33,131 nt of DNA from a virus (IMGVR_UViG_3300021354_000020:1-33131); one strand, 5' to 3'; shown: positions 3,801-21,670, counted from the first letter of the stretch. Notes: a model not told the origin generated them from the letters alone. Numbers and translations: made by a program.

Positions 3801-6800
3801 GTTTATTTGCTACTGGCACAGCAAATAACCTTGGTGTAAAATCTATTACACAAACAGTATCAAATACAATTGGTGGTGTTAACTTAGTTAATAACCCAAC
3901 ATACGAAGTAAATGCAACAGTCAATGAATTTGTGCAGTGGGGCGATATTGCTCCGATTTTCGATGCAAATGGTACTACAGGAGTTTCCTACTCATTATCA
4001 TTAGATGTGAAATCTGCTGTAGCAGGTCCTGTCTTTATTTACATGCAGAATGGGAGCTCGTCGAGATATGTTTTTAGTGGTGGCGGGTTCAACGTTAATG
4101 CTACAACTACATATCAAAGATTCACCATTAATAACTTTAGTGTTGCAATTAACGTTCCAACTGATACTGCATCAATGTTGGCGGCATATGGTATTTATGG
4201 TACTGGTGTATTACCATCTATTAAAAATGTACAAATAGAATTAAACACAGTTGCAACTGCATTTGATCCTAATACACGATATACAACTACTACTAAAACT
4301 TTTAATTCTAATCTTGGTAGTAGATTAATTACAGAAACTATAGATGGTATAGTTCCAAGTGCAACAAGTTCTACAGGTTCAGTTGCTACCAATGTTGCTA
4401 CTAGTAGAACTATTAAAGCAGATCGGGAATACATTTGGTCAAATACCACAATATCTGGAACAGCGACATATCATTCTCTGATAGAAATTCCTGTTACTGT
4501 AATTGTTATTGTACCTGTATCTACTACCTTATTGGTAGACAGAACACCTGTATTATTTGCCACTACAAGTTCTTCGAGTGTTACTGATGCAATTAGTTGT
4601 GCATTAAATGGTACTGTAGGTACTGTATCTACAGGGTATACAGGTACAAATGAAACAGTTACCCAGACCATTAATGGTTCAGGTACTACAGGTACTGTTG
4701 GTTCAATACAATCTATTGGTTATACATTAACGGGTACTAGTGCTTCTGCAACTGCATCTAATATTTTAAATGACACTGTTACTCAAATCATTACTGGTAC
4801 TACTGCAACAAGTTCTGCTGGTTCTATTGATACAACTGATTCTATTAGTTATTCACTGGCAATATTTGGTCTTACTGCAACTACATCATCAATTGATGTT
4901 AATGAAGTTGTTAGTTACACACTCAATAATACTGGTACTAGTTCTTCTGTAACTGCTAGTTCAATCAAATCTATTGGTTATACATTAACTGGTACTAGTG
5001 CTTCTGCCACTGCATCTAATATTTTAAATGATGCTGTTACTCAGACCATCAATGGGACTGGTAATGCCGCAATAGGTTCTACTGGTTCAGTTGATACAAC
5101 TGAATCTATCAGTTATACACTATCTGTTACTGGGTTATCTGGTACTGTATCTACAGGTTATACTGGCACTGATGAAACAATTACTCAAACCATTAATGGT
5201 ACTACAGGTACAGCAACAGCAGGTTCTATTGGTTCTATTGGTTATACATTAACTGGTACTAGTGCTTCTGCCACTGCATCTAATATACTAAATGATACTG
5301 TTACTCAGACCACTAATGGTACTGGTACTACTGCAACAAGTTCTGCTGGTTCTATTGATATAACTGAAACAGTTTCTGTTACCTTAAACAATATTGGTGC
5401 TACAGCAACTGCAACTGCAGGTTCTATATTATCGGTAGCGATAAGTCAAGTAATATCTGGAGTTAGTGGTGCAACTGCAACAGCAGGTTCAGTTAGTGTT
5501 ATTAATGCTACTAGTAGAACTATTAAAGCAGATCGGGAATACATTTTCTCGAATGTAACTTTATCAGGCACAGCAACCTATCATTCATTATTAGAAATTC
5601 CTGCTACTGTAATTGTTACTATACCAACATCTGCTACCTTATTGGTAGACAGAACACCTGTATTATTTGCCACTACAAGTTCTTCTCCTGTAAATGACGC
5701 ACTAAGTTTTACATTAAACACTACTGGTTTATCTGCTACTGGATCTTTAAGTTCATTAAAATCTATTGGATATACAGTAGGTGGGGTATCAGGAACTTCT
5801 TTAGCAGGTTTTATTAAATCTATTGGTTATACAGTAGCAGGTGAAATTGCAACATCCTCACTCACAACTCTCGATACAAACGAATCTATAGCATATACTT
5901 TATCTACGGTAGGGTTATCTGCAACAAGTTCTACGGTATCAATCGAAACAAATGAAGTTATTTCTGTTACCATCAATGGTACTGGTAATACTGCAACTAG
6001 TTCTACTGGTTATACAGGAACTGATGAAACAGTCTCATTTACCTTAAACACTACTAGTAATACTGCAACAAGTTCTGCTGGTTCTATTGATACAACTGAA
6101 TCTATCAGTTATACACTATCTGTTACTGGATTATCTGGTACTGTATCAACAGGGTATACAGGTACAAATGAAACAATTAGTTACACACTCAATAATACAG
6201 GTACTACTGCAACAAGTTCTGCTGGTTCTATTGATACAACTGAAACAGTTTCTGTTACCATTAATGGTTCAGGTACTACTGCAACAAGTTCTACTGGTTC
6301 AATTGATACAACTGAAACAGTTTCTGTTACCATTAATGGGACAGGTACTACTGCAACAAGTTCTACAGTATCAATCGAAACAAATGAAGTTATTTCTGTT
6401 ACCATCAATGGTACAGGTACTACTGTAACAAGTTCTGCTGGTTCTATTGATACAACTGAAACAGTTTCTGTTACCATCAATGGTACTGGTAATACTGCAA
6501 CAAGTTCTGCTGGTTCTATTGATATAACTGAATCTATCAGTTATACACTATCTGTTACTGGATTATCTGCAACTAGTTCTACTGGTTCAATTGATATAAT
6601 TGAAGTTATTTCTGTTACCATTAATGGGACTGGTAATACTGCAACTAGTTCTACAGGTTCTATTGATACAACTGAATCTATCAGTTATACAATGTCTGTT
6701 GTTGGGTTATCTGGTACTGTATCAACAGGGTATACAGGAACTGATGAAACAGTTTCTGTTACCTTAAACAATATTGGTGCTACTGCAACAAGTTCTGCTG

Positions 6801-9800
6801 GTTCTATTGATATAACTGAATCTATCAGTTATACACTATCTGTTACTGGTAATACTGCAACTAGTTCTACAGGTTATACTGGCACTAATGAAACAGTTTC
6901 TGTTACCTTAAACAATATTGGTGCTACAGCAATTGGTTCTGTTTCCAATATTTCAAATGATACTGTTACCCAGATCATTAATAGTACAGGTAACTTTGCG
7001 ACTGCCACTTCAGGTTCTATACCATCATTAAGTTATGCCCACACTCTTTCTGGAGTAGTATTAACGAGTAATACTACTCCAGTTATTACTAATAATGATA
7101 TTAGTAGAACTATTAAAGCAGATCGTGAATACATTTACTCGAATGTAACTTTATCAGGCACAGCAACCTATCATTCATTATTAGAAATTGCAAATAGTGT
7201 TTTAGTAATAGTACCAACAAGTACATTATTAGTAGTAGACAGAACACCTGTATTATTCGCTGCTACAAGTTCTTCACTCATTTCAGATGCAATTAATGTA
7301 ACCCTGAATAATATTGGTACTGCTGCTTCTGCAATAAATGGTTCAATCAAATCTATTGGATACACATTAACTGGTACTAGTACTACAGCAACAGCAGGTT
7401 CAATACAATCTATTGGTTATACATTAACGGGTACTAATGCTTCAGCAACTGCATCTAATATTTCAAATGATACTGTTACCCAGATCATTAATGGTACTAC
7501 AGGTAACAGTGCAACAAGTTCTGCTGGTTCAATTGATATAACTGAATCTATCAGTTATACACTATCTGTTACTGGTAATACTGCAACTAGTTCTACAGGT
7601 TATACTGGCACTAATGAAACAGTTTCTGTTACCTTAAACACTACTAGTAATACTGCAACAAGTTCTGCTGGTTCAATTGATATAACTGAAACAGTTTCTG
7701 TTACCTTAAACAATATTGGTGCTACTGCAACAAGTTCTGCTGGTTCTATTGATACAACTGAAACAGTTTCTGTTACCTTAAACAATATTGGTGCTACTGC
7801 AATTGGTTCTGTTTCCAATATTTCAAATGATACTGTTACCCAGATCATTAATGGTACTACAGGTAACAGTGCAACAAGTTCTACTGGTTCTATACCATCG
7901 GTAGCGATAAGTCAAGTAATATCTGGAGTTAGTGGTGCAACTGCAATAGCAGGTTCAGTTAGTGTTATTAATGCTACTAGTAGAACTATTAAAGCAGATC
8001 GGGAATACATTTACTCGAATGTAACACTTTCTGGCACAGCAACCTATCATTCATTATTAGAAATTGCAAATAGTGTTTTAGTAATAGTACCAACAAGTAC
8101 ATTATTAGTAGTAGACAGAACACCCGTATTATTTGCTAATACAAGTTCTTCAAGTGTTAGTGATACAACAAGTTATTCTATTAATGGAATAGGTAATGTA
8201 GGTACTATAACTGCAGGTTCAATACAATCTATTGGATATACTGTATCTGGAGTATTAGGAACTGCAACAGCAAGTTCAATCAAATCTATTGGTTATACAT
8301 TAACGGGTACTAATGCTTCAGCAACTGCATCTAATATTTCAAGCGATACTGTTACCCAGATCATTAATGGTACTGGTACTACTGCAAATGTCACTTCAGG
8401 TTCTATTGATACAACTGAATCTATCAGTTATACACTATCTGTTACTGGATTATCTGGTACTGTATCAACAGGGTATACAGGTACAAATGAAACAATTAGT
8501 TACGCGTTAAATGGTACTAGTACTACTGCAACAAGTTCTGTAGGTTCTATTGATACAACTGAAACTGTTTCTGTTACCATCAATGGTACTGGTAATGCTG
8601 CTACAGGTTCTGTAGGTTCTATTGATACAACTGAAACAGTTTCTGTTACCTTAAACAATATTGGTACTACTGCAAATGTCACTTCAGGTTCTATTGATAC
8701 AACTGAAACAGTTTCTGTTACCATTAATGGTTCAGGTAATGCTGCTACAGGTTCTGTAGGTTCTATTGGTGTTAATGAAGTTATTAGTTACACACTCAAT
8801 AATACAGGTACTACAATAACTGCCACCACAGGTTCAGTTAGTGTTAATAATGATATTAGTAGAACTGTTAAAGCAGATCGGGAATACATTTACTCGAATG
8901 TAACTTTATCTGGAACGATAACCTATCATTCTCTGATAGAAATTGCAAATAGTGTTTTAGTAATAGTACCAATAAGTGCTACCTTATTAGTTGATAGAAC
9001 TCCTGTATTATTTGCTAATACAAGTTCTTCGAGTGTTACTGATGCAATTAATTGTACATTAACTGGTACTAGTACTTCTGCAACAGCAAGTTCAATCAAA
9101 TCTATTGGATATACCTTAACTGGTACTAGTACTTCTGCAACAGCAGGTTCAATACAATCTATTGGATACACACTAAGTGGTACTAGTGCTCCTGCGACTG
9201 CATCTAATATTTCAAGCGATACTGTTACCCAGATCATTAATGGTACTACTAGTAATACTGCAACAAGTTCTACTGGTTCAATTGATGTTAATGAAGTTAT
9301 CAGTTATACACTATCTGTTACTGGATTATCTGCTACAGGTTCTGTAGGTTCTATTGATACAACTGAAACAGTTTCTGTTACCATTAATGGTTCAGGTAAT
9401 GCTGCTACAAGTTCTGCTGGTTCTATTGATACAACTGAAACAATTAGTTACACCATTAATGGTTCAGGTAACAGTGCAACAAGTTCTACTGGTTCAATTG
9501 ATATAACTGAATCTATCAGTTATACACTATCTGTTGTTGGGTTATCTGGTACTGTATCTACAGGTTATACTGACACTAATGAAACAATTAGTTACACCAT
9601 TAATGGTACTGGTACTACTGCAACAAGTTCTACTGGTTCTATTGGTGTTAATGAAGTTATTAGTTACACACTCAATAATACAGGTACTACAATAACTGCC
9701 ACCACAGGTTCAGTTAGTTCTAATAATGATATTAGTAAAACTATTAAGGCAGACAGAGAACAGATATTTGTTGATACTACAATATCAGGCACAGCAACCT

Positions 9801-12800
9801 ATCATTCATTATTAGAAATTGTATATCCAGCACTGGTTATTGTACCAACATCTGCTACCTTATTAGTTGATAGAACTCATGTATTATTCGCTGCTACAAG
9901 TTCTTCAAGTGTTACTGATGCAATTAATTGTACATTAACTGGTACTAGTACTTCTGCAACAGCAAGTTCAATCAAATCTATTGGTTATACCTTAACTGGA
10001 GTATTAGGAACTGCAACAGCAAGTTCAATCAAATCTATTGGATACACATTAACGGGAGTATCAGCAACTACATCTGCAACATCTATTGATACTAATGATT
10101 CTATCAGTTATTCACTGGCAATATCTGGTCTTACTGCAACTACCAATTCATTTGATGTTAATGAAGTAGTTTCCCATACTATTTCTGGTGAACCATCTGT
10201 TGCAACCACAGGTTCAGTTAGTGCTAATAATGATATTAGTAGAACTATTAAAGCAGATCGGGAATACATTTACTCGAATGTAACTTTATCAGGCACAGCA
10301 ACCTATCATTCATTATTAGAAATTGTATATCCAGCACTGGTTATTGTGCCAGTTGCGAATTTATTAGTAGTTGATAGAACTCCTGTATTATTTGCTAATA
10401 CAAGTTCTTCGAGTGTTACTGATGCAATTAGTTGTACACTCAATAATACTGGGTTATCCGTAACTGTATCTACTGGGTATACAGGAACAAACGAATCTAT
10501 TTCTGTTACACCTAATACTACTGGTAATACCGCAACAAGTTCTACTGGTTCTATTGATACAAATGAAGTTATCAGTTATACAATGTCTGTTGTTGGGTTA
10601 TCTGGTACTGTATCTACAGGTTATACAGGAACTAATGAAACAATTAGTTACACCATTAATGGGACAGGTAACAGTGCAACAAGTTCTGCTGGTTCTATTG
10701 ATACAACTGAAACAGTTTCTGTTACCATCAATGGTACTGGTAATGTCGCTACAGGTACAGCAGGTTCAGTTAGTGTTATTAATGCTATTAGTAGAACTAT
10801 TAAAGCAGATCGGGAATACATTTACTCGAATGTAACACTTTCTGGTACTGTTACATATCATTCATTATTAGAAATTTTATATCCAGCACGGGTTATTGTA
10901 CCAACAAGTACATTATTAGTAGTTGATAGAACTCCTGTATTATTCGCTGCTACAAGTTCTTCAAGTGTTACTGACACACTAAGTTTTACATTAAATGGTA
11001 CTACAACAACTGCCACTTCAGGTTCTATTGATACAACCGATTCTATCAGTTATTCACTGGCAATATCTGGTCTTACTGCAACTACGTCATCGATTGATGT
11101 TAATGAAGTAGTTTCCCATACTATTTCTGGTGAACTCTCGACTGCTTCTTATGGTGGTTCTGTAACCCATGGTGACGTAGTTTATATTAAGGCAGACAGA
11201 GAACAGATATTTGTTGATACCACAATATCCGGAACAGCGACTTATCATTCATTATTAGAAATTTTATATCCAGCACGGGTTATTGTACCAACAAGTACAT
11301 TATTAGTAGTTGATAGAACTCCTGTATTATTTGCAAGTACAAGTTCTTCTAATGTAACTGACACACTAAGTTTTACATTAAACACTTCTACTTTATCTAC
11401 CAACACATCTACTGGTTATACTGGTACCAATGAAACAATAAGTGTAACTCTCAATACTTCTACTTTATCTGCTAATGCGTCCACTGGTTACACTGGAACT
11501 GATGAAACAGTTACCCAAACCATTAATGGTACAAGTGTAGGTACTGCAACTACATCAATTGATGTTAATGAAGTTGTTAGTTACACACTCAATAATACTG
11601 GGGCAAATGCTTCTGTAACTGCAGGTTCAGTAACCTATACAATTGGAACAAATAATGTTAGTAGAACTATTAAAGCAGATCGTGAATACATTTACTCAAA
11701 TGTAACTTTATCTGGAACGATAACCTATCATTCATTATTAGAAATTATTAATCCAGTTTTAGTAATAGTACCAACAAGTACATTATTAGTAGTTGATAGA
11801 ACTCCTGTATTATTTGCAAGTACAAGTTCTTCAAGTGTTAGTGATGCAATTAGTTGTACATTAAATGGTGCTGTTACTACAGCAACATCTGGTTACACTG
11901 GAACTGATGAATCAGTCAGTTACACACTGAATAATACTGGGACAAGTGCAATAGGTTCTGCTTCTAATGTTGGTACTAGATCAATAAGTGTAACACTGAA
12001 TAATACTGGTGCTTCTGCAACTGTAACTTCAGGTTCAATTGACACGACTGATTCTATCAGTTATTCGCTGGCAATATCTGGATTAACAGCAACTACATCA
12101 TCAATTGATGTTAATGAAGTTGTTAGTTACACACTGAATAATACTGGTGCTTCTGCAAATGTCACTTCAGGTTCAGTAACCTATACAATTGGAACAAATA
12201 ATGTTGATGTTACAGTTACAGGTTATGACTTAATAGCAACATCTGGTTATACAGGAACTAATGAAACAATTAGTTACACCATTAATGGTACTGGTAATGC
12301 TGCAACTGTAACTTCAGGTTCAATTGACACGACTGATTCTATCAGTTATTCGCTGGCAATATCTGGTCTTACTGCAACTACATCATCAATTGATGTTAAT
12401 GAAACAATTAGTTACACCATTAATGGTACAAGTGTAGGTACTGCAACTGTAACTTCAGGTTCAATTGACACGACTGATTCTATCAGTTATTCACTGGCAA
12501 TATCTGGTCTTACTGCAACTACATCATCAATTGATGTTAATGAAGTTGTTAGTTACACACTGAATAATACTGGTGCTTCTGCAACTGTAACTTCAGGTTC
12601 AATTGACACGACTGATTCTATCAGTTATTCACTATCAATATCTGGATTAACAGCAACTACATCATCAATTGATGTTAATGAAGTTGTTAGTTACACACTC
12701 AATAATACTGGTGCTTCTGCAACTGTAACTGCAAGCAATATTAGTTTTGTTATTACAGTTTCAACTACTTCTAATAATGCAAATACTGCAAATGGAATCG

Positions 12801-13999
12801 CAGGATCTATAACTGATGCGATAAGGAATACCGTATCAGGCAGTATTTCTACTGCAACTGCACAGTCGATTTACTCAATTGGTGAGTTGGTATCAGGGTC
12901 TACGATAAATGCTTCGAATGGGTCTTTAGCAACAGAATCAATAAGTGTTGTAGTTTCTGGTGATGTAGTAACTACCGATACTGGGTATGTTTCGGGAAAT
13001 AATAATATATTAAGAACAGTTTCTGGTAGTACAATAGGAACTGCATTCAACGGGGTAAGTTATACAGTTTCCCAGAACTTACATACTGAATTATTAAATG
13101 CGTCTACAGGTGCATTGGGTAAAAATGTTGATGTATTTACATCTACAATTGATTTGGTATTATTCCAAGCAGAAATTGGACATCTAGAAAGAATTTCAAA
13201 TACACTTTCTGGTAGTTTAATTTCTGCTTCACCAACAACAATTACAGCAGGTGCTGCGGTATATGGTATTACTGCATTATCGTCTACTGGCAATATAATA
13301 AGTAACCCAATTGGGTCTCTACAGGGTAGTACATTAACTATAGTTGATGGGTCAATTCAAATATTGGAATTGATCAATCCTACATTATCAGGTTCAATTG
13401 CTACAGTATTACCAACTTCGCCTATAAAAACTGTAGGTGGTGTAATATCGGGTGAACTTGTAACTACTTCTACAGGAAGTATTAGAAGTAATATTGACAA
13501 ATATTTAAATGGAAGTATCGGTAATACTTCTGATGGTAGTATCAATCTTACAGAATTAGTTTCATATACATTATCTGGAACTGTTGGTAATATACTTCTT
13601 GGATCAATAAATGATTCTATAAGTGTTAGAGTATTAGGTACGTTAGTTAATTCTTCAGTTAATTCTGTAACTAATGGTACTTCAATTTACTCAAATGCTC
13701 TTGTAGCAACTACTGGCAATTTATCAGATAGTTTCTCTTTATTCTTACATGGTACTTCTGCTACTGCATTATTGAGTAGTGTTATACCTAAATTGGGTAG
13801 TCCACTTACAAACAAACTAAAGATCGCATTTGATGATGATATTAATATACATTTATGCTTTGACTTTAATAGTGAATTAAGGTTCTTATTTGATAGGTTA
13901 TATCAATACATTGTTTCGTTTGATGCATATTTTTATAACGTCAAGATGGATAAAAACTCTAAAGATTATAAAGTCGATTTCGATGAACTTATTGAATAA
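875..13999 (+). CDS. Giant repetitive virion/fibre-like protein (4374 aa)
   Basis: This uninterrupted 13.1-kb frame is extremely rich in Thr, Ser, Gly, Ala and Asn and nearly free of Cys. Residues 1-125 form a non-repetitive start. From about residue 130 the protein is a long run of ~22-25-residue units of the form SYTLNGTGTTATSSAGSIDT with GYTGTNET variants, consistent with a beta-solenoid-like fibre. Residues ~996-1135 hold a different domain resembling a carbohydrate-binding jelly roll (ending VQIELNTVATAFDPN). Ten copies of a ~65-residue module starting TIKADRE begin at residues 1179-3598. From ~3960 the repeats diverge, and the last ~75 residues are globular, charged and aromatic (FDDDINIHLCFDFN...). 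No signal peptide or catalytic motif is visible. It sits immediately upstream of gp13, where T4 carries the fibritin gene. A long adhesive or structural fibre is the likely role; the exact function is unknown. Confidence 0.75.
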   Translation: MTKAFQYNGFQLNSFQTSSNVSKTVSDQSVFWSGPTYLSASRNTFNPIFLNNGSVTISGNNSVGLTVLNTVAPTWNIISSNTTLTSSATTTYNAFLIVYSATTLVVPNTSTLLIEYLPNPAIITYAGTSVSGIQYTLNGTGTTGTVSSGYTGTNETISYALNGTGTTGTVSTGYTGTNETVTKTINGSGTTGTVGSIQSIGYTLTGTSASATASNILNDTVTQTITGTTATSSTGSIDVNEVISVTINGTGTTGTVSSGYTGTNETITQTINGTTGTATAGSIQSIGYTLTGTSTTATAGSIGSIGYTLTGTLASGSASNILNDTVTQTINGTTATGSAGSIDTTETVSVTINGTGTVGTVSTGYTGTNETVTQTINGAITSATSSTGSIDTTETISYTINGAITSATSSTGSIDTTETISYTINGTGTTATSSAGSIDTTETVSVTINGAITSATSSAGSIDVNEVISVTINGGTTGTVSTGYTGTDETISYALNGTSTTATAGSIQSIGYTLTGTSASATASNISNDTVTQTINGTTATSSAGSIDTNEVISYTLTGTTATSSAGSIDTTETVSVTINGTTATSSAGSIDTNEVISYTMSVVGLSGTVSTGYTGTETISYTINGTGTTATAGSIGSIGYTLTGTSASATASNISNDTVTQTINGTSNTATSSAGSIDITESISYTLSVVGLSGTVSTGYTGTDETISYALNGTGTTGTATAGSIQSIGYTLTGTSAPATASNISSDTVTQTINGTTATSSAGSIDTNEVISYTMSVVGLSGTVSTGYTGTETISYALNGTTCTATAGSIQSIGYTLTGTSASATASNISNDTVTQIITGNAATSSTGSIDVNEVISYTLSVTGLSGTVSTGYTGTNETITQTINGTTGTATAGSIQSIGYTLSGTSASATASNILNDTVTQTINGTGNTATSSAGSIDTTETVSVTINGTGNSATSSVSNISSINTTYTPNTSSLFATGTANNLGVKSITQTVSNTIGGVNLVNNPTYEVNATVNEFVQWGDIAPIFDANGTTGVSYSLSLDVKSAVAGPVFIYMQNGSSSRYVFSGGGFNVNATTTYQRFTINNFSVAINVPTDTASMLAAYGIYGTGVLPSIKNVQIELNTVATAFDPNTRYTTTTKTFNSNLGSRLITETIDGIVPSATSSTGSVATNVATSRTIKADREYIWSNTTISGTATYHSLIEIPVTVIVIVPVSTTLLVDRTPVLFATTSSSSVTDAISCALNGTVGTVSTGYTGTNETVTQTINGSGTTGTVGSIQSIGYTLTGTSASATASNILNDTVTQIITGTTATSSAGSIDTTDSISYSLAIFGLTATTSSIDVNEVVSYTLNNTGTSSSVTASSIKSIGYTLTGTSASATASNILNDAVTQTINGTGNAAIGSTGSVDTTESISYTLSVTGLSGTVSTGYTGTDETITQTINGTTGTATAGSIGSIGYTLTGTSASATASNILNDTVTQTTNGTGTTATSSAGSIDITETVSVTLNNIGATATATAGSILSVAISQVISGVSGATATAGSVSVINATSRTIKADREYIFSNVTLSGTATYHSLLEIPATVIVTIPTSATLLVDRTPVLFATTSSSPVNDALSFTLNTTGLSATGSLSSLKSIGYTVGGVSGTSLAGFIKSIGYTVAGEIATSSLTTLDTNESIAYTLSTVGLSATSSTVSIETNEVISVTINGTGNTATSSTGYTGTDETVSFTLNTTSNTATSSAGSIDTTESISYTLSVTGLSGTVSTGYTGTNETISYTLNNTGTTATSSAGSIDTTETVSVTINGSGTTATSSTGSIDTTETVSVTINGTGTTATSSTVSIETNEVISVTINGTGTTVTSSAGSIDTTETVSVTINGTGNTATSSAGSIDITESISYTLSVTGLSATSSTGSIDIIEVISVTINGTGNTATSSTGSIDTTESISYTMSVVGLSGTVSTGYTGTDETVSVTLNNIGATATSSAGSIDITESISYTLSVTGNTATSSTGYTGTNETVSVTLNNIGATAIGSVSNISNDTVTQIINSTGNFATATSGSIPSLSYAHTLSGVVLTSNTTPVITNNDISRTIKADREYIYSNVTLSGTATYHSLLEIANSVLVIVPTSTLLVVDRTPVLFAATSSSLISDAINVTLNNIGTAASAINGSIKSIGYTLTGTSTTATAGSIQSIGYTLTGTNASATASNISNDTVTQIINGTTGNSATSSAGSIDITESISYTLSVTGNTATSSTGYTGTNETVSVTLNTTSNTATSSAGSIDITETVSVTLNNIGATATSSAGSIDTTETVSVTLNNIGATAIGSVSNISNDTVTQIINGTTGNSATSSTGSIPSVAISQVISGVSGATAIAGSVSVINATSRTIKADREYIYSNVTLSGTATYHSLLEIANSVLVIVPTSTLLVVDRTPVLFANTSSSSVSDTTSYSINGIGNVGTITAGSIQSIGYTVSGVLGTATASSIKSIGYTLTGTNASATASNISSDTVTQIINGTGTTANVTSGSIDTTESISYTLSVTGLSGTVSTGYTGTNETISYALNGTSTTATSSVGSIDTTETVSVTINGTGNAATGSVGSIDTTETVSVTLNNIGTTANVTSGSIDTTETVSVTINGSGNAATGSVGSIGVNEVISYTLNNTGTTITATTGSVSVNNDISRTVKADREYIYSNVTLSGTITYHSLIEIANSVLVIVPISATLLVDRTPVLFANTSSSSVTDAINCTLTGTSTSATASSIKSIGYTLTGTSTSATAGSIQSIGYTLSGTSAPATASNISSDTVTQIINGTTSNTATSSTGSIDVNEVISYTLSVTGLSATGSVGSIDTTETVSVTINGSGNAATSSAGSIDTTETISYTINGSGNSATSSTGSIDITESISYTLSVVGLSGTVSTGYTDTNETISYTINGTGTTATSSTGSIGVNEVISYTLNNTGTTITATTGSVSSNNDISKTIKADREQIFVDTTISGTATYHSLLEIVYPALVIVPTSATLLVDRTHVLFAATSSSSVTDAINCTLTGTSTSATASSIKSIGYTLTGVLGTATASSIKSIGYTLTGVSATTSATSIDTNDSISYSLAISGLTATTNSFDVNEVVSHTISGEPSVATTGSVSANNDISRTIKADREYIYSNVTLSGTATYHSLLEIVYPALVIVPVANLLVVDRTPVLFANTSSSSVTDAISCTLNNTGLSVTVSTGYTGTNESISVTPNTTGNTATSSTGSIDTNEVISYTMSVVGLSGTVSTGYTGTNETISYTINGTGNSATSSAGSIDTTETVSVTINGTGNVATGTAGSVSVINAISRTIKADREYIYSNVTLSGTVTYHSLLEILYPARVIVPTSTLLVVDRTPVLFAATSSSSVTDTLSFTLNGTTTTATSGSIDTTDSISYSLAISGLTATTSSIDVNEVVSHTISGELSTASYGGSVTHGDVVYIKADREQIFVDTTISGTATYHSLLEILYPARVIVPTSTLLVVDRTPVLFASTSSSNVTDTLSFTLNTSTLSTNTSTGYTGTNETISVTLNTSTLSANASTGYTGTDETVTQTINGTSVGTATTSIDVNEVVSYTLNNTGANASVTAGSVTYTIGTNNVSRTIKADREYIYSNVTLSGTITYHSLLEIINPVLVIVPTSTLLVVDRTPVLFASTSSSSVSDAISCTLNGAVTTATSGYTGTDESVSYTLNNTGTSAIGSASNVGTRSISVTLNNTGASATVTSGSIDTTDSISYSLAISGLTATTSSIDVNEVVSYTLNNTGASANVTSGSVTYTIGTNNVDVTVTGYDLIATSGYTGTNETISYTINGTGNAATVTSGSIDTTDSISYSLAISGLTATTSSIDVNETISYTINGTSVGTATVTSGSIDTTDSISYSLAISGLTATTSSIDVNEVVSYTLNNTGASATVTSGSIDTTDSISYSLSISGLTATTSSIDVNEVVSYTLNNTGASATVTASNISFVITVSTTSNNANTANGIAGSITDAIRNTVSGSISTATAQSIYSIGELVSGSTINASNGSLATESISVVVSGDVVTTDTGYVSGNNNILRTVSGSTIGTAFNGVSYTVSQNLHTELLNASTGALGKNVDVFTSTIDLVLFQAEIGHLERISNTLSGSLISASPTTITAGAAVYGITALSSTGNIISNPIGSLQGSTLTIVDGSIQILELINPTLSGSIATVLPTSPIKTVGGVISGELVTTSTGSIRSNIDKYLNGSIGNTSDGSINLTELVSYTLSGTVGNILLGSINDSISVRVLGTLVNSSVNSVTNGTSIYSNALVATTGNLSDSFSLFLHGTSATALLSSVIPKLGSPLTNKLKIAFDDDINIHLCFDFNSELRFLFDRLYQYIVSFDAYFYNVKMDKNSKDYKVDFDELIE
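3862..4280 (+). other. Carbohydrate-binding-module-like domain within giant protein
   Basis: Residues ~996-1135 of the giant protein are non-repetitive, with the pattern of CBM-type jelly-roll domains common in phage fibres: NLVNNPTYEV at the start, a SYSLSLDVKS strand, a TTTYQRFTIN strand, and the closing VQIELNTVATAFDPN (typical 'QLE...AT.F.P' end). It interrupts the repeats between the first short-repeat array and module copy 1. The assignment is by pattern recognition only; sugar binding is an inference. Confidence 0.45.
4409..11860 (+). repeat. Ten copies of the TIKADRE / LLVDRTPVLF module
   Basis: A ~65-residue module reads (S)RTIKADREYIYSN, then VTLSGTATYHSLLEI, then VIVPTSTLLVVDRTPVLFA. 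Copies start at bases 4409, 5519, 7109, 7985, 8864, 9740, 10244, 10796, 11183 and 11666, all in the same frame. Copies 6 (9740) and 9 (11183) share a variant start, KADREQIFVDTTISG. Copies 3 to 6 are spaced 876-879 bases apart, a higher-order repeat. The alternating hydrophobic pattern suggests a few beta-solenoid turns that may break the fibre into segments. Confidence 0.85.
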
Positions 14000-15090: not shown

Positions 15091-15966
15091 ATGATCAGCA
15101 AAGATATTTATACACCATATTTTTATATTATTCAACATAAAGAATCTAAAAAATTGTATGCGGGTTCTAGGTATGCTAAAGAATGTCACCCAGATGAATT
15201 TATGCAATCCAATGGATATACAACATCATCTAATACTATTAATGATATTATAAATCAAGAAGGATTGGATTCATTTGAAATTTTAAGGATTGACATCAAT
15301 TGTGATGGATTGCATCCTTATGATTATGAAACATTATTTTTAGAAACTATGGACTGTGCTAGTTCTCCTGATTGGTATAATGGACATAATAATAAATTTA
15401 AGAATATGCCAGAGTTTTATTTTGGTTCTAATAAACTCAACTCAATTATATTTGAAAAATATGGTGTTTATAATTGCATGAATATAGAAGAAATAAAACT
15501 TAAACAAAAAGTTGCAGAAAAGAAAACTTTGATGGAAAAATATGGTGTTGATCATAATATGAAAATACTCGGTATAGCTAAAAAAGCATCTGAAAAAAGA
15601 ATTGATAGTTGGAAATTGTCTGAAACTGGTAGATCACCTTTATTTGGTAGAACTGGTATTATGTGTGCTGGTACTGGTGTTGAACATAATATATCAGATG
15701 AAGGTCGTAAAGTTTTATCTGAAAATGGTAAAAGAAGAAAAAATATACCAAATCCAAAATTATCGATATATCAAAAAACCCAAGGTAATTTCGTAACAAA
15801 CAATCCAATGAACGATCCAGAAAAAAGGAAAAAAGTAGGAATGAGTAAATTGGGAAAAAGGTCTTATATCAATCCATCTATATCAAATAAAAGAAAAATG
15901 TTTATACCAGGTGAAGAACCAGCTGGATATATTTCTATTTCTAATTACAATCGGTTCATGGGATAA
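15091..15966 (+). CDS. Free-standing GIY-YIG-like homing endonuclease between gp13 and gp14
   Basis: This 291-residue protein starts with a degenerate GIY-YIG core: PYFYIIQHKESKKLYAGSRY, giving the 'YI...YAG' pair and a following Arg, and a later Glu in YDYETLFLETMDC. The nuclease part spans about residues 9-110. Residues ~125-180 contain two copies of an EKYGV-type element (EKYGVYNCMNIEEIKLKQK and EKYGVDHNMKILGIAKK), seen as DNA-binding repeats in phage endonucleases. The rest is Lys-rich, with a NUMOD3-like KKVGMSKLGKRSY segment. AGGAA (15081-15085) is the ribosome-binding site. It interrupts the normally adjacent gp13-gp14 pair, and its tail overlaps the gp14 translation-initiation region. 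It was probably acquired as a selfish mobile gene; catalytic activity is uncertain because the motifs are degenerate. Confidence 0.7.
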   Translation: MISKDIYTPYFYIIQHKESKKLYAGSRYAKECHPDEFMQSNGYTTSSNTINDIINQEGLDSFEILRIDINCDGLHPYDYETLFLETMDCASSPDWYNGHNNKFKNMPEFYFGSNKLNSIIFEKYGVYNCMNIEEIKLKQKVAEKKTLMEKYGVDHNMKILGIAKKASEKRIDSWKLSETGRSPLFGRTGIMCAGTGVEHNISDEGRKVLSENGKRRKNIPNPKLSIYQKTQGNFVTNNPMNDPEKRKKVGMSKLGKRSYINPSISNKRKMFIPGEEPAGYISISNYNRFMG

Positions 15967-17387: not shown

Positions 17388-17450
17388 TAAGACCTCACAC
17401 CAAACCTAACACAGTTAGTATACATTATAATCCAAATAAAGTAAAGCCCT
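17381..17450 (+). repeat. 70-bp intergenic repeat, copy 1 (before gp17)
   Basis: The stretch starting TTTCTAATAAGACCTCACAC recurs at 33061-33130 with 66 of 70 bases identical; the first 44 are exact and the differences are at offsets 45, 46, 51 and 53. It contains a small CTAAC/GTTAG hairpin and a TATACA. It includes the gp15 stop codon and fills nearly all the gp15-gp17 gap. A shared regulatory element such as a non-late promoter or processing site is plausible, and a small mobile repeat is the alternative. Confidence 0.85.
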
Positions 17451-17464
17451 AATACGAAAATAAA

Positions 17465-17824
17465 ATGGCATCTGAAACTTATAATAATAATCCAAATCTT
17501 AAAGGTGCAAACGTAAATGTTGCTTATACCAAGCAACAGATTGCTGAGTACATAAAGTGTAAAAATGATCCCGTTTATTTTATAGATACCTACTGTAAAA
17601 TAATTTCTCTTGACCATGGTATCATACCTTTCAAGTTATACGATTGTCAAAAAAATAAAGTACAAATTATCCATGATAATAGAAAAGTTATTCTTATGGA
17701 GGGAAGACAGCAGGGAAAATGTTTTGAAAAAGAGACTAAATACAACATCAGAAATAAAATCACTGGAGAAGTATTAAATGTCACAGCAGAAGAATTCCAC
17801 AAACTATGTAACAAGAATTTGTAA
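17465..17824 (+). CDS. gp17: Terminase large subunit fragment N (TerL-N) fused to intein-1 N-half
   Basis: The 119-residue product has two parts. Residues 1-85 are the N-terminal part of a T4-type gp17 packaging ATPase (KNDPVYFIDTYCKI, PFKLYDCQ, VILMEGRQQGK), ending inside the Walker A P-loop. Residues 86-119 are an intein N-half starting with the splicing nucleophile Cys86 (CFEKETKYNIRNKITGEVLN), followed by a stop. On its own the fragment lacks the P-loop Thr, Walker B and nuclease. It would be joined in trans to the next piece, whose intein half ends ...SHN followed by Thr, restoring GRQQGKT. The stop codon lies in a hairpin (17807-17835), and the following endonuclease ORF overlaps by 47 bases. 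Confidence 0.88.
   Translation: MASETYNNNPNLKGANVNVAYTKQQIAEYIKCKNDPVYFIDTYCKIISLDHGIIPFKLYDCQKNKVQIIHDNRKVILMEGRQQGKCFEKETKYNIRNKITGEVLNVTAEEFHKLCNKNL
17720..17821 (+). other. Split intein 1, N-half (34 aa)
   Basis: Residues 86-119 of TerL-N begin with Cys directly after the P-loop GK and carry an intein block-A pattern with IRNKITGEVLN, a signature found in many phage inteins. Canonical split inteins have N-halves near 100 residues; this one stops after 34, before the TxxH-type block B, which is on the C-half. It is therefore an atypically split intein. Confidence 0.85.
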
Positions 17825-18782
17825 AATTTGTTACAATAATTTTTTAGGATATAAAACTGCTGTTATATGTTCTGATGAGTGTAGGAAAATAAATTCTTCT
17901 AATAGTAAAGAACTGAGCAGAAAGAAATCTGTAGAGAATTCTCATATTAAATATTCATCTGATAGCGATATTAATTCTTTTATTGAATGTAAAATATGCG
18001 GGTATAGGTCGCCTGATATAGGTTCTCATATATTAATACACGACATAAAACCAGAAGAATATAAAAAAGAACATGGTGAAGTTGTTTGTGTAAATAAAAA
18101 AATATTGTTTGTTGGAGAAAACAATCCAGCATATAATCATGGTGGTAAATTATCTCCATTCAGCAAAAATTTTATACATTATAAATCAGATGAATATATT
18201 GAAAATTTAAAACAAGAGTCGGTAAAAACTAAAATTAAAAATAATAGTAATCCGCTTACCGTAGGATATTATACTTCGCGAGGAATGTCACTAGAAGAAG
18301 CAGAATCAAAATTATCAGATAGACAAAGAACATTCTCCTTAGAAAAGTGTATAGAAAAACATGGTGAAATAGAGGGATTAAAAGTCTGGAGTGACAGACA
18401 ATATAAGTGGTCTAAATCTTTTAAAAAACAAAATTATTCTAAAATATCTCAAGAGTTGTTTGATGAATTATATAAATATTACAATTCTACTGAAATTTAC
18501 TATGCCACAAAGGATAAATCTATAGATAAAAATCAGGAATATAGATTACGACTAATCGATGGTTCATTAGTTTTGCCAGATTTTATATGCATGGACTCAA
18601 AAAAGATAATAGAATTTGATGGTGATTATTGGCACAGTGAACAAGTAGCAAACCCGTCAAAAGAGAAAGATAGGGATTATAGAATATTAAACAGTGGATA
18701 TTCATTATTACATATAAGAGAGTATGATTTTAAGAACGATAGACAGAAAGTTATTGAAGAATGTTTAAATTATCTGATATAG
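17778..18782 (+). CDS. Homing endonuclease with zinc fingers and Vsr-like (EDxHD-type) nuclease domain
   Basis: This 334-residue protein lies between the two halves of intein 1. Near the N-terminus is a Cys-ribbon (CKIC at 15-18 with Cys31 and Cys35), then a C2H2-like finger (CKICGYRSPDIGSHILIHDI, ~residues 69-88) followed by an EEYKKEHG helix, a common DNA-binding module in phage endonucleases. The C-terminal ~90 residues resemble the Vsr/EDxHD fold: QEYRLRLIDGSLVLPDF, KKIIEFDGDYWH, then YSLLHIREYDF. Endonucleases of this family were described inside 'fractured genes' with split inteins. GGAG at 17765-17768 is a good ribosome-binding site within the intein N-half. The ORF overlaps TerL-N by 47 bases and TerL-M by 22. 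The start is fixed by the need to include the first CxxC. Confidence 0.8.
   Translation: MSQQKNSTNYVTRICKICYNNFLGYKTAVICSDECRKINSSNSKELSRKKSVENSHIKYSSDSDINSFIECKICGYRSPDIGSHILIHDIKPEEYKKEHGEVVCVNKKILFVGENNPAYNHGGKLSPFSKNFIHYKSDEYIENLKQESVKTKIKNNSNPLTVGYYTSRGMSLEEAESKLSDRQRTFSLEKCIEKHGEIEGLKVWSDRQYKWSKSFKKQNYSKISQELFDELYKYYNSTEIYYATKDKSIDKNQEYRLRLIDGSLVLPDFICMDSKKIIEFDGDYWHSEQVANPSKEKDRDYRILNSGYSLLHIREYDFKNDRQKVIEECLNYLI
17807..17835 (+). other. Hairpin spanning the stop of TerL-N
   Basis: TGTAACAA (17807-17814) pairs with TTGTTACA (17828-17835). An inner ATTT (17817-17820) pairs with AAAT (17824-17827) around loop GTA, with a two-base GA bulge on the 5' side. The TerL-N stop TAA (17822-17824) is in the tip, and a T-run follows near 17840. 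It also lies in the start region of the endonuclease ORF. It might attenuate or coordinate expression of the two overlapping genes. Confidence 0.4.
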
Positions 18783-19126
18783 TAAGTAGAAAATTTATAG
18801 AATCATTTGATGCTTCTGATTGGGAGGTAGAAACTGAGGATGGGTTTAAATCTATTATTTCTGCCAATAAAACTATTGAATATCAAGTTTATCATTTAAA
18901 ATTAGATAATGGATTAGAAATTAAATGTGCAGATACACATATTTTAATTGATGAAAATTATAATGAAATATATGCTGTAGATTCTTTGAACCATTCCATT
19001 ATAACTAAATTTGGTATTGCCTCAGTTATATCTATAGAGGATCTCGGTTATTCAGAAAATATGTATGATCTATCTGTAGATTCAGAAGATCATACTTTTT
19101 ACACAAATGATATTTTATCACATAAT
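18761..19126 (+). other. Split intein 1, C-half (122 aa)
   Basis: This half contains a block-B-like segment (LEIKCADTHILI, with His60), a block-F segment (MYDLSVDSEDHTFYTNDI) and block G ending Ser-His-Asn, followed by Thr (+1 nucleophile) at 19127. With the 34-residue N-half the intein is 156 residues, normal for a mini-intein. The block-B Thr of the usual TxxH appears replaced by Ala. Confidence 0.85.
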
Positions 19127-19786
19127 ACTCAGACCTCTGCTGCATATATTCTTTGGTATGTCAATTTTAATGATGCGAAACATGTAGCAATTTTGGCGAA
19201 CAAATCCTCTGCTGCACGAGAGGTAATGAGTAGACTTCAATTGATGTTTGAGTTATTACCTGCTTGGTTGAAACGAGGTGTCAAAACTTGGAATAAGGGT
19301 GATATAGAATTAGATAATGCTTCAAAGGTTTTCACTGCGGCGACTACTGGTTCTGGTATCCGTGGTAAAACTGTTAATATGTTATACATAGATGAGACCG
19401 CCTTTATTGCTAACACCGTTGCAGAGGAGTTCTTTACTTCGGTTTACCCTACAATTTCTTCTGGCACAACATCTAAAATATTACTTAGTTCTACTCCACT
19501 TGGATACAATCACTTCTGGAAGTTCTGGACAGATGCTGAAAAAGGTGCTAACGACTTTGTGCCTTTATTCATTCCTTATTGGGAAATTCCAGGAAGAGAC
19601 GAAGCATGGGCAGAAGAACAAAGAAGGCAACTTGGTGAACTGAAATATTGTCAGGAAGTTTTGTGTGTTGCAGGAAATACTATTATAACTTTGCAAGATA
19701 CTGAAACTGGAAAAATTATAAATATACCTATAGAAGAAGCATATAATTTAATAAATGCTAGTCACGATGCAGCAAACATCTACTAG
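18761..19786 (+). CDS. gp17: Terminase middle fragment (TerL-M) flanked by intein-1 C-half and intein-2 N-half
   Basis: The 341-residue product has three parts. Residues 1-122 are the C-half of intein 1, ending FYTNDILSHN. Residues 123-301 are TerL sequence: TQTSAAYILWYV completes Walker A, LYIDE (208-212) is Walker B, and SSTP (243-246) is the ATPase coupling motif, ending RQLGELKYCQEVL. Residues 302-341 are the N-half of intein 2, starting CVAGNTIITLQDTETGK. The piece therefore needs splicing at both ends. Its start codon lies in the last 22 bases of the upstream endonuclease, with no strong ribosome-binding site, suggesting translational coupling. Its last codons form the 5' part of the HEG-associated hairpin. 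All key ATPase residues are intact, arguing against a decayed gene. Confidence 0.88.
   Translation: MFKLSDIVSRKFIESFDASDWEVETEDGFKSIISANKTIEYQVYHLKLDNGLEIKCADTHILIDENYNEIYAVDSLNHSIITKFGIASVISIEDLGYSENMYDLSVDSEDHTFYTNDILSHNTQTSAAYILWYVNFNDAKHVAILANKSSAAREVMSRLQLMFELLPAWLKRGVKTWNKGDIELDNASKVFTAATTGSGIRGKTVNMLYIDETAFIANTVAEEFFTSVYPTISSGTTSKILLSSTPLGYNHFWKFWTDAEKGANDFVPLFIPYWEIPGRDEAWAEEQRRQLGELKYCQEVLCVAGNTIITLQDTETGKIINIPIEEAYNLINASHDAANIY
19664..19783 (+). other. Split intein 2, N-half (40 aa or less)
   Basis: It begins with Cys302 of TerL-M after ...KYCQEVL and reads CVAGNTIITLQDTETGK then INIPIEEAYNLI. The start resembles, from memory, the 25-residue N-half of the AceL-TerL intein (CVYGDT...). 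The last ~9 residues (ASHDAANIY) are encoded by the HEG-associated hairpin, so the functional intein part may be only about 30 residues. Confidence 0.82.
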
Positions 19787-19787
19787 C
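19757..19787 (+). ncRNA. HEG-associated two-stem RNA hairpin, copy B
   Basis: Outer stem GCTAGT (19757-19762) with ACTAGC (19782-19787); 5' bulge CAC; inner stem GATG (19766-19769) with CATC (19777-19780); loop CAGCAAA; then TCTAA. It covaries with copy A at 15027-15056. Here the hairpin overlaps coding sequence: the TAG stop of TerL-M (19784-19786) lies in the 3' arm of the outer stem. The endonuclease start follows 25 bases later. Confidence 0.55.
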
Positions 19788-19812
19788 TCTAATGTCATAA
19801 GAGGACACCAGC

Positions 19813-20574
19813 ATGAATATTTATACTCCCATTGAACAACCTACATATCTCTATATCAAACAACACTCAGTTACTGGTCTAAAATACTTAGGCAAAACAA
19901 CTAGAGATCCATACAAATATAATGGTTCTGGTAAGCATTGGATTCGCCATATTAAAAAACATGGTAAAGAACATATAGTTACGCTATGGGTGTCAGATCT
20001 CTTTCATGATACCTCCATTGTTGATTATGCCTTGCAATTGTCCAAAGAATATAGCATTGTAGAATCTAAGGAATGGGCTAATCTAAAACCCGAAAATGGA
20101 TTAGATGGTACAATTCCTGGACTAAAATTTACGTTAGAACAGAGACAAAAATGTTCAGAAAATCATTGGGCTAAAGGTTTATCAAGAGAATTAAATCCTA
20201 ATACAGGTTCTAAAAGATCTAAAGAAGCTAAGAAAAATATATCTAAAAGTAAAATAGGTAAACCAAATCTAAAGTTAAAAGGTAGAATTCCTTCAATTCA
20301 TACTAGAGAATTATGGTCAGAAATACGAAAAGGAAAAAATATCAATATAAAAGAAGATAGAAAGAAAGAATTATTAGAATTATATTCTAAAGTATTTACT
20401 TTATATAATTCAAAACCGTCTTTACATATTAAATATGATTATATTGCTAAAAATGGAAAGTGGTTTTCATATGAAAATGCTTTTGCTAAATCATTTGCAT
20501 CTGATTTTAATGTATCAGCTAGAACTATATTAAATATATTAAGAAAAACACAAATATTACAAAATGAACTCTAG
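19813..20574 (+). CDS. GIY-YIG homing endonuclease with NUMOD3-like motifs, inside split intein 2
   Basis: This 253-residue protein lies between the halves of intein 2. The N-terminal ~100 residues carry a GIY-YIG nuclease core: PTYLYIKQHSVTGLKYLGKT, then Arg in TTRDPYKYNGSG, a mid-domain YALQLSKEYSIVES with the candidate catalytic Glu, and NLKPENGLDG. Residues ~110-160 are Lys/Ser-rich with NUMOD3-type elements (RSKEAKKNISKSKIGKPN, LKGRIPSIHT), which bind DNA in such enzymes. The C-terminus has a helix-turn-helix-like FNVSARTILNILRK. GAGGA (19801-19805) is a good ribosome-binding site. It overlaps the TerL-C start by 11 bases. It probably cuts intein-free terminase genes so that the cassette spreads, a role inferred from its location. 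Confidence 0.82.
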   Translation: MNIYTPIEQPTYLYIKQHSVTGLKYLGKTTRDPYKYNGSGKHWIRHIKKHGKEHIVTLWVSDLFHDTSIVDYALQLSKEYSIVESKEWANLKPENGLDGTIPGLKFTLEQRQKCSENHWAKGLSRELNPNTGSKRSKEAKKNISKSKIGKPNLKLKGRIPSIHTRELWSEIRKGKNINIKEDRKKELLELYSKVFTLYNSKPSLHIKYDYIAKNGKWFSYENAFAKSFASDFNVSARTILNILRKTQILQNEL

Positions 20575-20863
20575 ATATAAAATATTGACTCCTTCTGGGT
20601 TTCAATCCTTTGATGGTATCATTAAAAATAAAAGGAACACTATACAAATATCATTTGTAGATGATAGTAATATTATAGTAACAGAAAATCATAGATTTAT
20701 AGATAATGATAAAGAAATTATTGCAGGATTATTGAGTACTGGAGATGTTTTAAATGATAAAATAATTGTTGATATTATTTCTTATGGTGAAATAGATGTA
20801 TATGATCCAATAAATGTTGATAATGGAAATTTATATTATTCAAATGATTTAATTTCTCACAAT
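20564..20863 (+). other. Split intein 2, C-half (100 aa, AceL-TerL-like)
   Basis: The half contains KILTPSGFQSFDGI, block B with a full TxxH (VTENHRF), block F (VYDPINVDNGNLYYSNDLI) and the terminal Ser-His-Asn, followed by Cys (+1 nucleophile) at 20864. The YDPINV element and the insertion site before C-x-FLG match what I recall of the AceL-TerL intein. The usual block-F His appears to be Asn (NGNLYY). Confidence 0.85.
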
Positions 20864-21670
20864 TGCTCCTTTTTAGGTTCTAGTTCTACATTATTACCAT
20901 CAGATGTTCTTTCTAAGTTATCTGCCGATGTAATAATACACCATAAAGATGGGCTTGATATATATGAAGAACCACAAAAAGATCACATCTATGTTATAAC
21001 TGCTGATGTTGCAAAAGGTGTCGGTGGGGATAATTCTGCGTTTCATGTAATTGACATAACAGAAACTCCGTACAAACAAGTAGCAAAGTATAAAGATAAC
21101 CTTATAAGTCCATTACTATATCCAAATATAATTTATAAAGTAGGTAAAGATTATAATAATGCGTTTGTTTTATTGGAGATAAATATATCAGAACAAGTTG
21201 CACATATTTTACATTATGAGTTAGAATATGAAAATATGATTCTAATAAATAAGACTCAAAAAGGATTAAATAGAGGTCAGATAGCAGGGTCTGGGTTTGG
21301 TAGCAAACCTATGTTAGGTGTTAATACTGACAAGAAGACAAAAAGAATTGGTTGTGCGAATTTAAAATCATTAGTTAGTGAAAACAAATTAATAATTAGA
21401 GATGCCGATACTATAGGTGAATTATCCACCTTTATTGAAGTAAAAGATTCGTTTGCTGCCGATGATGGGTACAAAGATGATTTAGTGATGGCACTAGTCA
21501 TTTTCGGTTGGTTAACATCCCAGCAATTTTTTAAAGAATTAAACAATGTGAATCTACGAAATTTATTATATGCTAACCAAATGAGGGAAATAGAAGATTT
21601 GACTCCATTTGGATTTTTTAATGACGGTAATGAATTAGAACATGAATTCATACCATTAATAAATTTCTGA
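20564..21670 (+). CDS. gp17: Terminase C-terminal fragment (TerL-C) fused to intein-2 C-half
   Basis: The 368-residue product starts with the 100-residue C-half of intein 2 (ending LYYSNDLISHN), followed by Cys101 and TerL sequence CSFLGSSSTLLPSDVLSKL, corresponding to the CEF(L/M)G segment of T4 gp17. The RNase-H-like headful nuclease follows, with candidate metal ligands Asp148 (ITADVAKG), Glu205 (FVLLEINIS) and Asp305/Asp306 (YKDDLVMAL). After two trans-splicing steps the mature terminase would be 85+179+268 = 532 residues, a usual TerL length. The start codon lies within the endonuclease 3' end, with only a weak ribosome-binding site. The protein packages DNA into proheads and cuts concatemers. 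Confidence 0.88.
   Translation: MNSRYKILTPSGFQSFDGIIKNKRNTIQISFVDDSNIIVTENHRFIDNDKEIIAGLLSTGDVLNDKIIVDIISYGEIDVYDPINVDNGNLYYSNDLISHNCSFLGSSSTLLPSDVLSKLSADVIIHHKDGLDIYEEPQKDHIYVITADVAKGVGGDNSAFHVIDITETPYKQVAKYKDNLISPLLYPNIIYKVGKDYNNAFVLLEINISEQVAHILHYELEYENMILINKTQKGLNRGQIAGSGFGSKPMLGVNTDKKTKRIGCANLKSLVSENKLIIRDADTIGELSTFIEVKDSFAADDGYKDDLVMALVIFGWLTSQQFFKELNNVNLRNLLYANQMREIEDLTPFGFFNDGNELEHEFIPLINF

What the first reader, a model, noticed from the sequence alone, without database searches (positions are those of the whole stretch)
17465..21670. Terminase large subunit encoded in three pieces joined by two different split inteins
TerL-N ends ...GRQQGK then Cys (intein-1 N-half). TerL-M begins with a C-half ending SHN then TQTSAAY, and ends ...KYCQEVL then Cys (intein-2 N-half). 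TerL-C begins with a C-half ending SHN then CSFLG. Removing both inteins gives one continuous ~532-residue TerL with intact Walker A, Walker B, coupling and nuclease motifs. Split inteins in phage terminases are known, but two consecutive ones in one gene, requiring two orthogonal trans-splicing events for a packaging motor, would be very unusual.
Basis: partly seen in the sequence, partly recalled or inferred. Interest (0 to 1): 0.95.

Follow-up and report, generated by a model that had tools for sequence, protein, structure and literature searches.

The report
Packaging motor spliced from three pieces
In this uncultivated T4-like phage the gene for the DNA-packaging motor is cut into three separately translated pieces that two different self-splicing protein elements (split inteins, each with its own DNA-cutting gene beside it) should stitch back together, and searching shows this is one of a recurrent class of such multiply broken motor genes, some in four pieces.

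Summary
A T4 gp17-type TerL is encoded as TerL-N/IntN1 (17465-17824), IntC1/TerL-M/IntN2 (18761-19786) and IntC2/TerL-C (20564-21670). Removing the inteins gives 532 residues colinear with T4 gp17 (E about 1e-93) and with dozens of intact relatives, with no gap or duplication at either junction. The breaks fall inside Walker A (GRQQGK^T) and just before the ATPase-nuclease boundary (QEVL^CSFLG). Each split intein encloses a homing-endonuclease gene: EDxHD/Vsr-like at site 1, GIY-YIG-like at site 2.

Relatives supply the whole allele series: neither intein, site 1 only, site 2 only, both. All pieces are under purifying selection. Intein-2 halves are 99% identical to those in another phage while the flanking exteins are 73-82%, a lateral-transfer footprint.

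The arrangement is not unique. Of 150 TerL clusters (a sample enriched for inteins), 21 are called with two or more split inteins (16 with junction residues seen for at least two) and four with three. Intein 2 belongs to the AceL-TerL/Cat family of atypically split inteins. I found no earlier report of multiply fractured TerL, but the key 2009 paper was not readable. Splicing and orthogonality are inferred, not shown.

The parts
17465..17719 (+). TerL-N extein, 85 aa, ends inside Walker A (GRQQGK; K corresponds to T4 gp17 K166)
17720..17824 (+). Intein 1 N-half (IntN1), 34 aa, starts Cys; then stop
   Evidence: dN/dS 0.047 against L001
17778..18782 (+). Homing-endonuclease ORF 1, 334 aa, EDxHD/Vsr-like C-terminal nuclease (EFDGDYWH); overlaps the end of IntN1 and the start of IntC1
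   Evidence: DUF559 9.6e-6, weak Vsr, best Foldseek match the I-Bth0305I catalytic domain 3r3p (low-confidence model)
18761..19126 (+). Intein 1 C-half (IntC1), 122 aa, ends SHN; +1 residue Thr
   Evidence: Pfam Intein_splicing, TIGR01443; Cat, gp41-1 and VidaL structures
19127..19663 (+). TerL-M extein, 179 aa: rest of Walker A, Walker B (LYIDE), coupling motif (SSTP)
   Evidence: Terminase_6N 2.4e-11
19664..19786 (+). Intein 2 N-half (IntN2), 40 aa, starts Cys; then stop
   Evidence: 99.2% nt identity to L083
19813..20574 (+). Homing-endonuclease ORF 2, 253 aa, GIY-YIG/NUMOD3-like; overlaps the start of IntC2
   Evidence: phrog_314 homing endonuclease 1.3e-8; weak NUMOD3
20564..20863 (+). 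Intein 2 C-half (IntC2), 100 aa, ends SHN; +1 residue Cys
   Evidence: CatC (6dsl) 5.7e-13, gp41-1 3.5e-5
20864..21670 (+). TerL-C extein, 268 aa: end of ATPase and RNase-H-like nuclease
   Evidence: Terminase_6C 1.2e-10

Best explanation
This is a doubly fractured TerL gene. Two atypically split (short IntN) class-1 type inteins, each with a free-standing homing-endonuclease gene between its halves, have invaded two conserved sites of one T4 gp17-type terminase gene. Translation gives five products: TerL-N/IntN1, HE1, IntC1/TerL-M/IntN2, HE2 and IntC2/TerL-C. IntN1 pairs with IntC1 and IntN2 with IntC2. Cys1 starts each N-S acyl shift, the chain is transferred to Thr+1 (intein 1) or Cys+1 (intein 2), and cyclisation of the C-terminal Asn releases the intein. 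Both ligations are needed for one 532-aa packaging ATPase-nuclease. Each endonuclease would cut intein-free TerL alleles at its own site, spreading its split intein as one block. Gene anatomy, extein continuity, empty-site alleles, site-specific intein groups, selection and a lateral-transfer footprint are shown here. Splicing, the pairing rules and nuclease activity are inferred from the families.
For: Junctions and halves. Colinearity of the spliced extein with T4 gp17 and with intact relatives. Intein family matches. Endonuclease matches. Allele series: none in about 70 loci; site 1 only in L001, L004, L085, L086, L091; site 2 only in L002/L083 and L011; both in L003. Site specificity of C-halves: site-1 nearest relatives at the same site 53/53, site-2 42/44; 12 label changes on the tree against 56 in shuffles. 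Purifying selection: dN/dS 0.05 (IntN1), 0.13 (IntC1), 0.12 (HE1), 0.04-0.07 (extein M), 0.11-0.14 (extein C), 0.16 (IntC2 against L084). Transfer footprint: IntN2 and IntC2 dS 0.04 and 0.017 against extein dS about 1.4. Trans-splicing is reported for AceL-TerL and GOS-TerL (PMC11766414).
Against: No splicing, expression or cleavage data. The record is a 33-kb fragment, so another TerL elsewhere in the genome cannot be excluded. IntN1 and IntN2 are related, so cross-pairing is possible; IntN2 with IntC1 on TerL-M could even cyclise that piece. HE assignments are weak by sequence (one search finds no credible structure match for HE2), and the HE1 structure model has low confidence.
Confidence: 0.88

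Rival explanations
1. The pieces do not splice. TerL works as a complex of three separate subunits, and the intein remnants are decayed or serve only as docking domains.
For: No direct splicing data. T4-like phages have a known genes-in-pieces case, the split NrdA that works as two peptides (Friedrich 2007, cited in PMC10448857).
Against: Break 1 lies between the Lys and Thr of the Walker A P-loop, where the catalytic fold would hardly form from two chains. Cys1, the block B His, the penultimate His and the terminal Asn are kept at both inteins. All halves with enough divergence to measure are under purifying selection.
Confidence: 0.07
2. The locus is being inactivated (pseudogene), or is a frameshift or assembly artefact, and a complete TerL exists elsewhere.
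For: The record is a fragment of one metagenomic assembly.
Against: Each break contains about 1.2-1.4 kb with an intact ORF. The same breaks recur in independent contigs (L001, L003, L002 and L083 from two metagenomes). dN/dS of the TerL pieces is 0.04-0.14. TerL sits in its usual place before gp18-gp19-gp20.
Confidence: 0.03
3. The interruptions are removed at RNA level (group I or II introns carrying endonuclease ORFs), not at protein level.
For: TerL introns exist in phages (ICP1, PMC10448857). The Campylobacter phage IBB_35 TerL interruption was described as an intein plus an intron (PMC3322345).
Against: The interruptions begin and end in frame with intein blocks (Cys1 ... SHN^T and SHN^C), match intein families, and the pieces have their own starts and stops. 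The Rfam tool was not run on the window.
Confidence: 0.02

Closest known systems
AceL-TerL, GOS-TerL and the Cat consensus (naturally and atypically split TerL inteins)
   Same: TerL host, short IntN (25-37 aa) and long IntC (104-115 aa) (PMC11766414). IntC2 matches CatC at 5.7e-13. From memory the AceL-TerL flank is CEFLG, the same site as intein 2.
   Different: Those were described one per gene from fragments. Here a second split intein from a different group sits in the same gene, at Walker A, with +1 Thr.
Fractured genes (Dassa et al. 2009, NAR 37:2560)
   Same: Conserved phage gene broken by a split intein with a free-standing Vsr-like endonuclease between the halves (from memory of the abstract; full text not held).
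   Different: Two breaks in one gene, hence a middle piece with an intein half at each end; the second endonuclease is GIY-YIG-like.
Kuttervirus/Ackermannviridae TerL mini-intein (Salmonella phages Vi01 and Maynard; Vibrio Kuja)
   Same: Same Walker A insertion site; IntC1-related sequence.
   Different: Contiguous, spliced in cis, no endonuclease gene inside.
Vibrio phage VP-1 TerL
   Same: Inteins at the same two sites; site 2 is split and has a GIY-YIG-like nuclease.
   Different: Site-1 intein is cis; the nuclease is fused in frame to IntN2.
Campylobacter phages IBB_35 and CP21 TerL
   Same: Isolates with several TerL inteins, at least one split.
   Different: Other sites (Walker B region). 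The IBB_35 paper calls it an intein plus an intron (PMC3322345).

Membership tests
T4 gp17-type terminase large subunit | Spliced product colinear with gp17, with Walker A, Walker B and RNase-H nuclease residues | tested here: met
Class 1 intein (each of the two) | N-terminal Cys, block B His, penultimate His, C-terminal Asn, +1 Cys/Ser/Thr | tested here: met
   Cys1 in both; ADTHIL and TENHRF; SHN^T and SHN^C
Class 1 intein (each of the two) | Catalyses protein splicing | not testable with these tools
   needs co-expression
AceL-TerL/Cat atypically split inteins | Homologous IntC and IntN of about 25-40 aa | tested here: met
   intein 2: CatC 5.7e-13, IntN 40 aa. Intein 1: CatC 2.5e-6, IntN 34 aa, a separate site-1 group
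Fractured gene with enclosed endonuclease | Two intein halves on separate ORFs with an HE ORF between | tested here: met
   both breaks
EDxHD (Vsr-like) homing endonuclease, HE1 | Vsr-like fold and motif | tested here: inconclusive
   motif EFDGDYWH conserved; best Foldseek match I-Bth0305I, E 6.6e-3, model pLDDT 66
GIY-YIG homing endonuclease, HE2 | GIY-YIG domain | tested here: inconclusive
   phrog_314 homing endonuclease 1.3e-8, weak NUMOD3; no credible PDB match
Orthogonal split-intein pair | No cross-splicing between the pairs | not testable with these tools
   C-halves lack a BLAST match at E 0.01; N-halves share 9 of 31 residues

The most novel reading that the evidence does not exclude
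A natural protein that must be assembled from three (in relatives four) polypeptides by two or three orthogonal trans-splicing reactions. TerL of uncultivated T4-like phages would be a repeated target of stacked, site-specific split inteins that each break a conserved motif, with lateral exchange of endonuclease cassettes inside the split inteins.
Probability: 0.75. Interest if true: 0.75.

Novelty: new variant of a known kind. Interest (0 to 1): 0.64.

Why it matters
Tandem three-segment trans-splicing with orthogonal split inteins is an engineering goal (PMC12707363). Here nature appears to do it for an essential motor, so these loci are ready-made, co-evolved pairs to test for orthogonality. 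The allele series (none, either, both, three) allows study of how a gene passes from whole to multiply fractured while staying under purifying selection. It also warns that annotation pipelines will report such terminases as fragments or miss them, and TerL is a standard phage marker gene.

Tried and rejected
Uniqueness of the double break: rejected. Late-promoter motifs (TATAAATA) driving the inner pieces: 10 matches against 7.8 expected, not above chance. Sequence search for structures of the endonucleases: nothing credible. AlphaFold of the TerL-M piece: mean pLDDT 54, not used further. Dassa 2009 and Stevens 2018 are not held. A short automatic third insertion in L116 (227 nt) and a first one in L229 are not inteins and are not counted as such. 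Small-terminase search (PF11053) in the record: nothing, but the controls did not ring either.

Full report
WHAT IS THERE. The window is one IMG/VR virus record of 33,131 bases holding a T4-like head-tail cluster: an adaptor gene, gp14-type neck protein, gp15, the terminase region, gp18 sheath, gp19 tube, gp20 portal. The terminase region has five overlapping or closely spaced + strand ORFs: TerL-N (17465-17824), HE1 (17778-18782), TerL-M (18761-19786), HE2 (19813-20574) and TerL-C (20564-21670). TerL-N ends GRQQGK and then runs into a 34-aa intein N-half starting with Cys. TerL-M opens with a 122-aa intein C-half ending SHN and closes with a 40-aa N-half starting with Cys. TerL-C opens with a 100-aa C-half ending SHN.

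ARE THE EXTEINS CONTINUOUS? Removing both inteins gives 532 residues that align without a gap at either junction to T4 gp17 (3ezk, E 1.6e-93). By that alignment break 1 is between the Walker A residues equivalent to K166 and T167, and break 2 is after the residue equivalent to 353, just before the ATPase-nuclease boundary (boundary from general knowledge of gp17). About 70 related loci have the same protein in one uninterrupted ORF, which gives the empty-site controls.

ARE THEY INTEINS? IntC1 matches Pfam Intein_splicing and TIGR01443 (Intein_splicing is below its curated cut-off, TIGR01443 above its own) and the solved Cat, gp41-1, GyrA and VidaL inteins. IntC2 matches CatC at 5.7e-13. Cys1, the block B His, the penultimate His and the terminal Asn are present in both; the +1 residue is Thr for intein 1 and Cys for intein 2. 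The short N-half and long C-half are the atypical split of AceL-TerL (25+104), GOS-TerL (37+115) and Cat-TerL (30+104) (PMC11766414).

WHAT LIES BETWEEN THE HALVES. HE1 has a conserved EFDGDYWH motif, weak DUF559 and Vsr family matches, and a low-confidence model whose best structural match is the catalytic domain of I-Bth0305I. HE2 matches a homing-endonuclease family (phrog_314) and has a GIY-YIG-like N-terminus. At site 1, L085 and L091 carry an HE with a related N-terminal part but a different, GIY-YIG-like C-terminal domain, and at site 2 L003 and L104 carry another GIY-YIG-like gene. So the endonuclease changes while the intein site stays.

THE ALLELE SERIES. Tblastn of the spliced protein over related contigs gives neither intein (most loci), site 1 only (L001, L004, L085, L086, L091), site 2 only (L002/L083, L011) and both (the window and L003). 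Extending the search with C-half alignments and a TerL HMM and clustering at 95% gives 150 TerL clusters from 233 loci: 55 without an intein, 62 with one, 33 with two or more. By the automatic clusters have two or more split inteins. In 16 of these I saw the N- and C-junction residues of at least two split inteins. Four (L104, L112, L161, L213) have three split inteins; in L112 the third N-half was not located. L104 was read in detail: TerL in four polypeptides with three endonucleases. Because loci were fetched with intein queries, these are not population frequencies. Isolates show milder forms: Vibrio phage VP-1 has a cis intein at site 1 and a split one at site 2; Campylobacter phage IBB_35 has one cis and two split inteins, with a middle extein of only eight residues (CNIIVVDE), which its authors described as an intein plus an intron.

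INDEPENDENT ELEMENTS. Nearest relatives of C-halves are at the same site in 53/53 (site 1) and 42/44 (site 2) cases. The two C-halves of the window have no BLAST match to each other at E 0.01, and site labels need 12 changes on the tree against 56 in shuffles (many forks unresolved). N-halves follow the same pattern more weakly (46/48 and 33/41). This fits two elements that arrived separately.

MOVEMENT AND SELECTION. Against L083, intein-2 halves are 99% identical at DNA level (dS 0.04 and 0.017), while flanking exteins are 82% and 73% (dS about 1.4) and the middle of HE2 is 77%. The outer edges of high identity coincide with the intein boundaries. I read this as lateral transfer of intein 2, plus separate exchange or conversion of the endonuclease between its halves. 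Site 1 against L001 shows a milder contrast (dS 0.5-0.9 in the intein and HE1, about 2 in exteins). All coding parts with enough divergence have dN/dS well below 1, so the pieces are kept functional after fracturing.

MECHANISM. Shown: anatomy, continuity, conserved catalytic residues, selection, transfer footprint. Inferred: two trans-splicing reactions, cognate pairing, homing by HE1 and HE2, translation of the inner pieces by coupling to the overlapping HE ORFs. Wrong pairing would have visible consequences: IntN1 with IntC2 would join TerL-N to TerL-C without the middle, and IntN2 with IntC1 could cyclise TerL-M. Cross-reactivity of short N-halves is documented for another intein (PMC3443213), and GOS-TerL accepts the AceL N-half (PMC11766414), so orthogonality needs a test.

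NOVELTY. Split TerL inteins, fractured genes with Vsr-like endonucleases, and proteins with two cis inteins (M. smegmatis DnaB, PMC6195587) are known. Searches of the open library found no report of one gene broken by two or more split inteins in nature. Important subscription papers are not held, so this is absence in that library only. I file it as a new variant of a known kind.

Noticed in passing
window 15091-15966: Free-standing homing-endonuclease-like ORF (DUF7487, phrog_3339) between the adaptor gene and the gp14-type neck gene, a third such gene in this cluster.
   Followed up: partly
window 17388-17464: No room for a small terminase (gp16) gene between gp15 and TerL, unlike L004 and L104, which have a short ORF there; the same absence is reported for Campylobacter phage IBB_35 (PMC3322345). 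The PF11053 search was uninformative.
   Followed up: partly
window 19813-20563: HE2 is a mosaic against L083: 77% in the middle but 88-93% at its ends and 99% in the intein halves around it, suggesting cassette exchange of endonucleases inside a split intein.
   Followed up: partly
L085:3931-4998 and L091:3667-4743: Site-1 endonuclease with the Vsr-like nuclease domain replaced by a GIY-YIG-like C-terminus.
   Followed up: no
L250:3502-8778 (IBB_35) and L257:5508-9818 (CP21): TerL of isolated Campylobacter phages carries three inteins; in IBB_35 the middle polypeptide would contribute only the eight residues CNIIVVDE around Walker B. Published as intein plus intron. A frame break near 7555-7562 in L250 is unexplained.
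   Followed up: partly
L251 and L252:4998-6326 (PC5, CP81): Fletchervirus TerL C-part begins with an intein C-half at the Walker B site; no N-part was found in the ~10-kb stretch fetched, so the two halves appear to lie far apart in the genome.
   Followed up: no
L235:1283-2296 and L229:2292-3356: A truncated, intein-free TerL N-terminal copy lies directly upstream of the intein-bearing TerL.
   Followed up: no
window 875-13999: Single ORF of 4374 aa; no Pfam match in the first 1442 aa.
   Followed up: no
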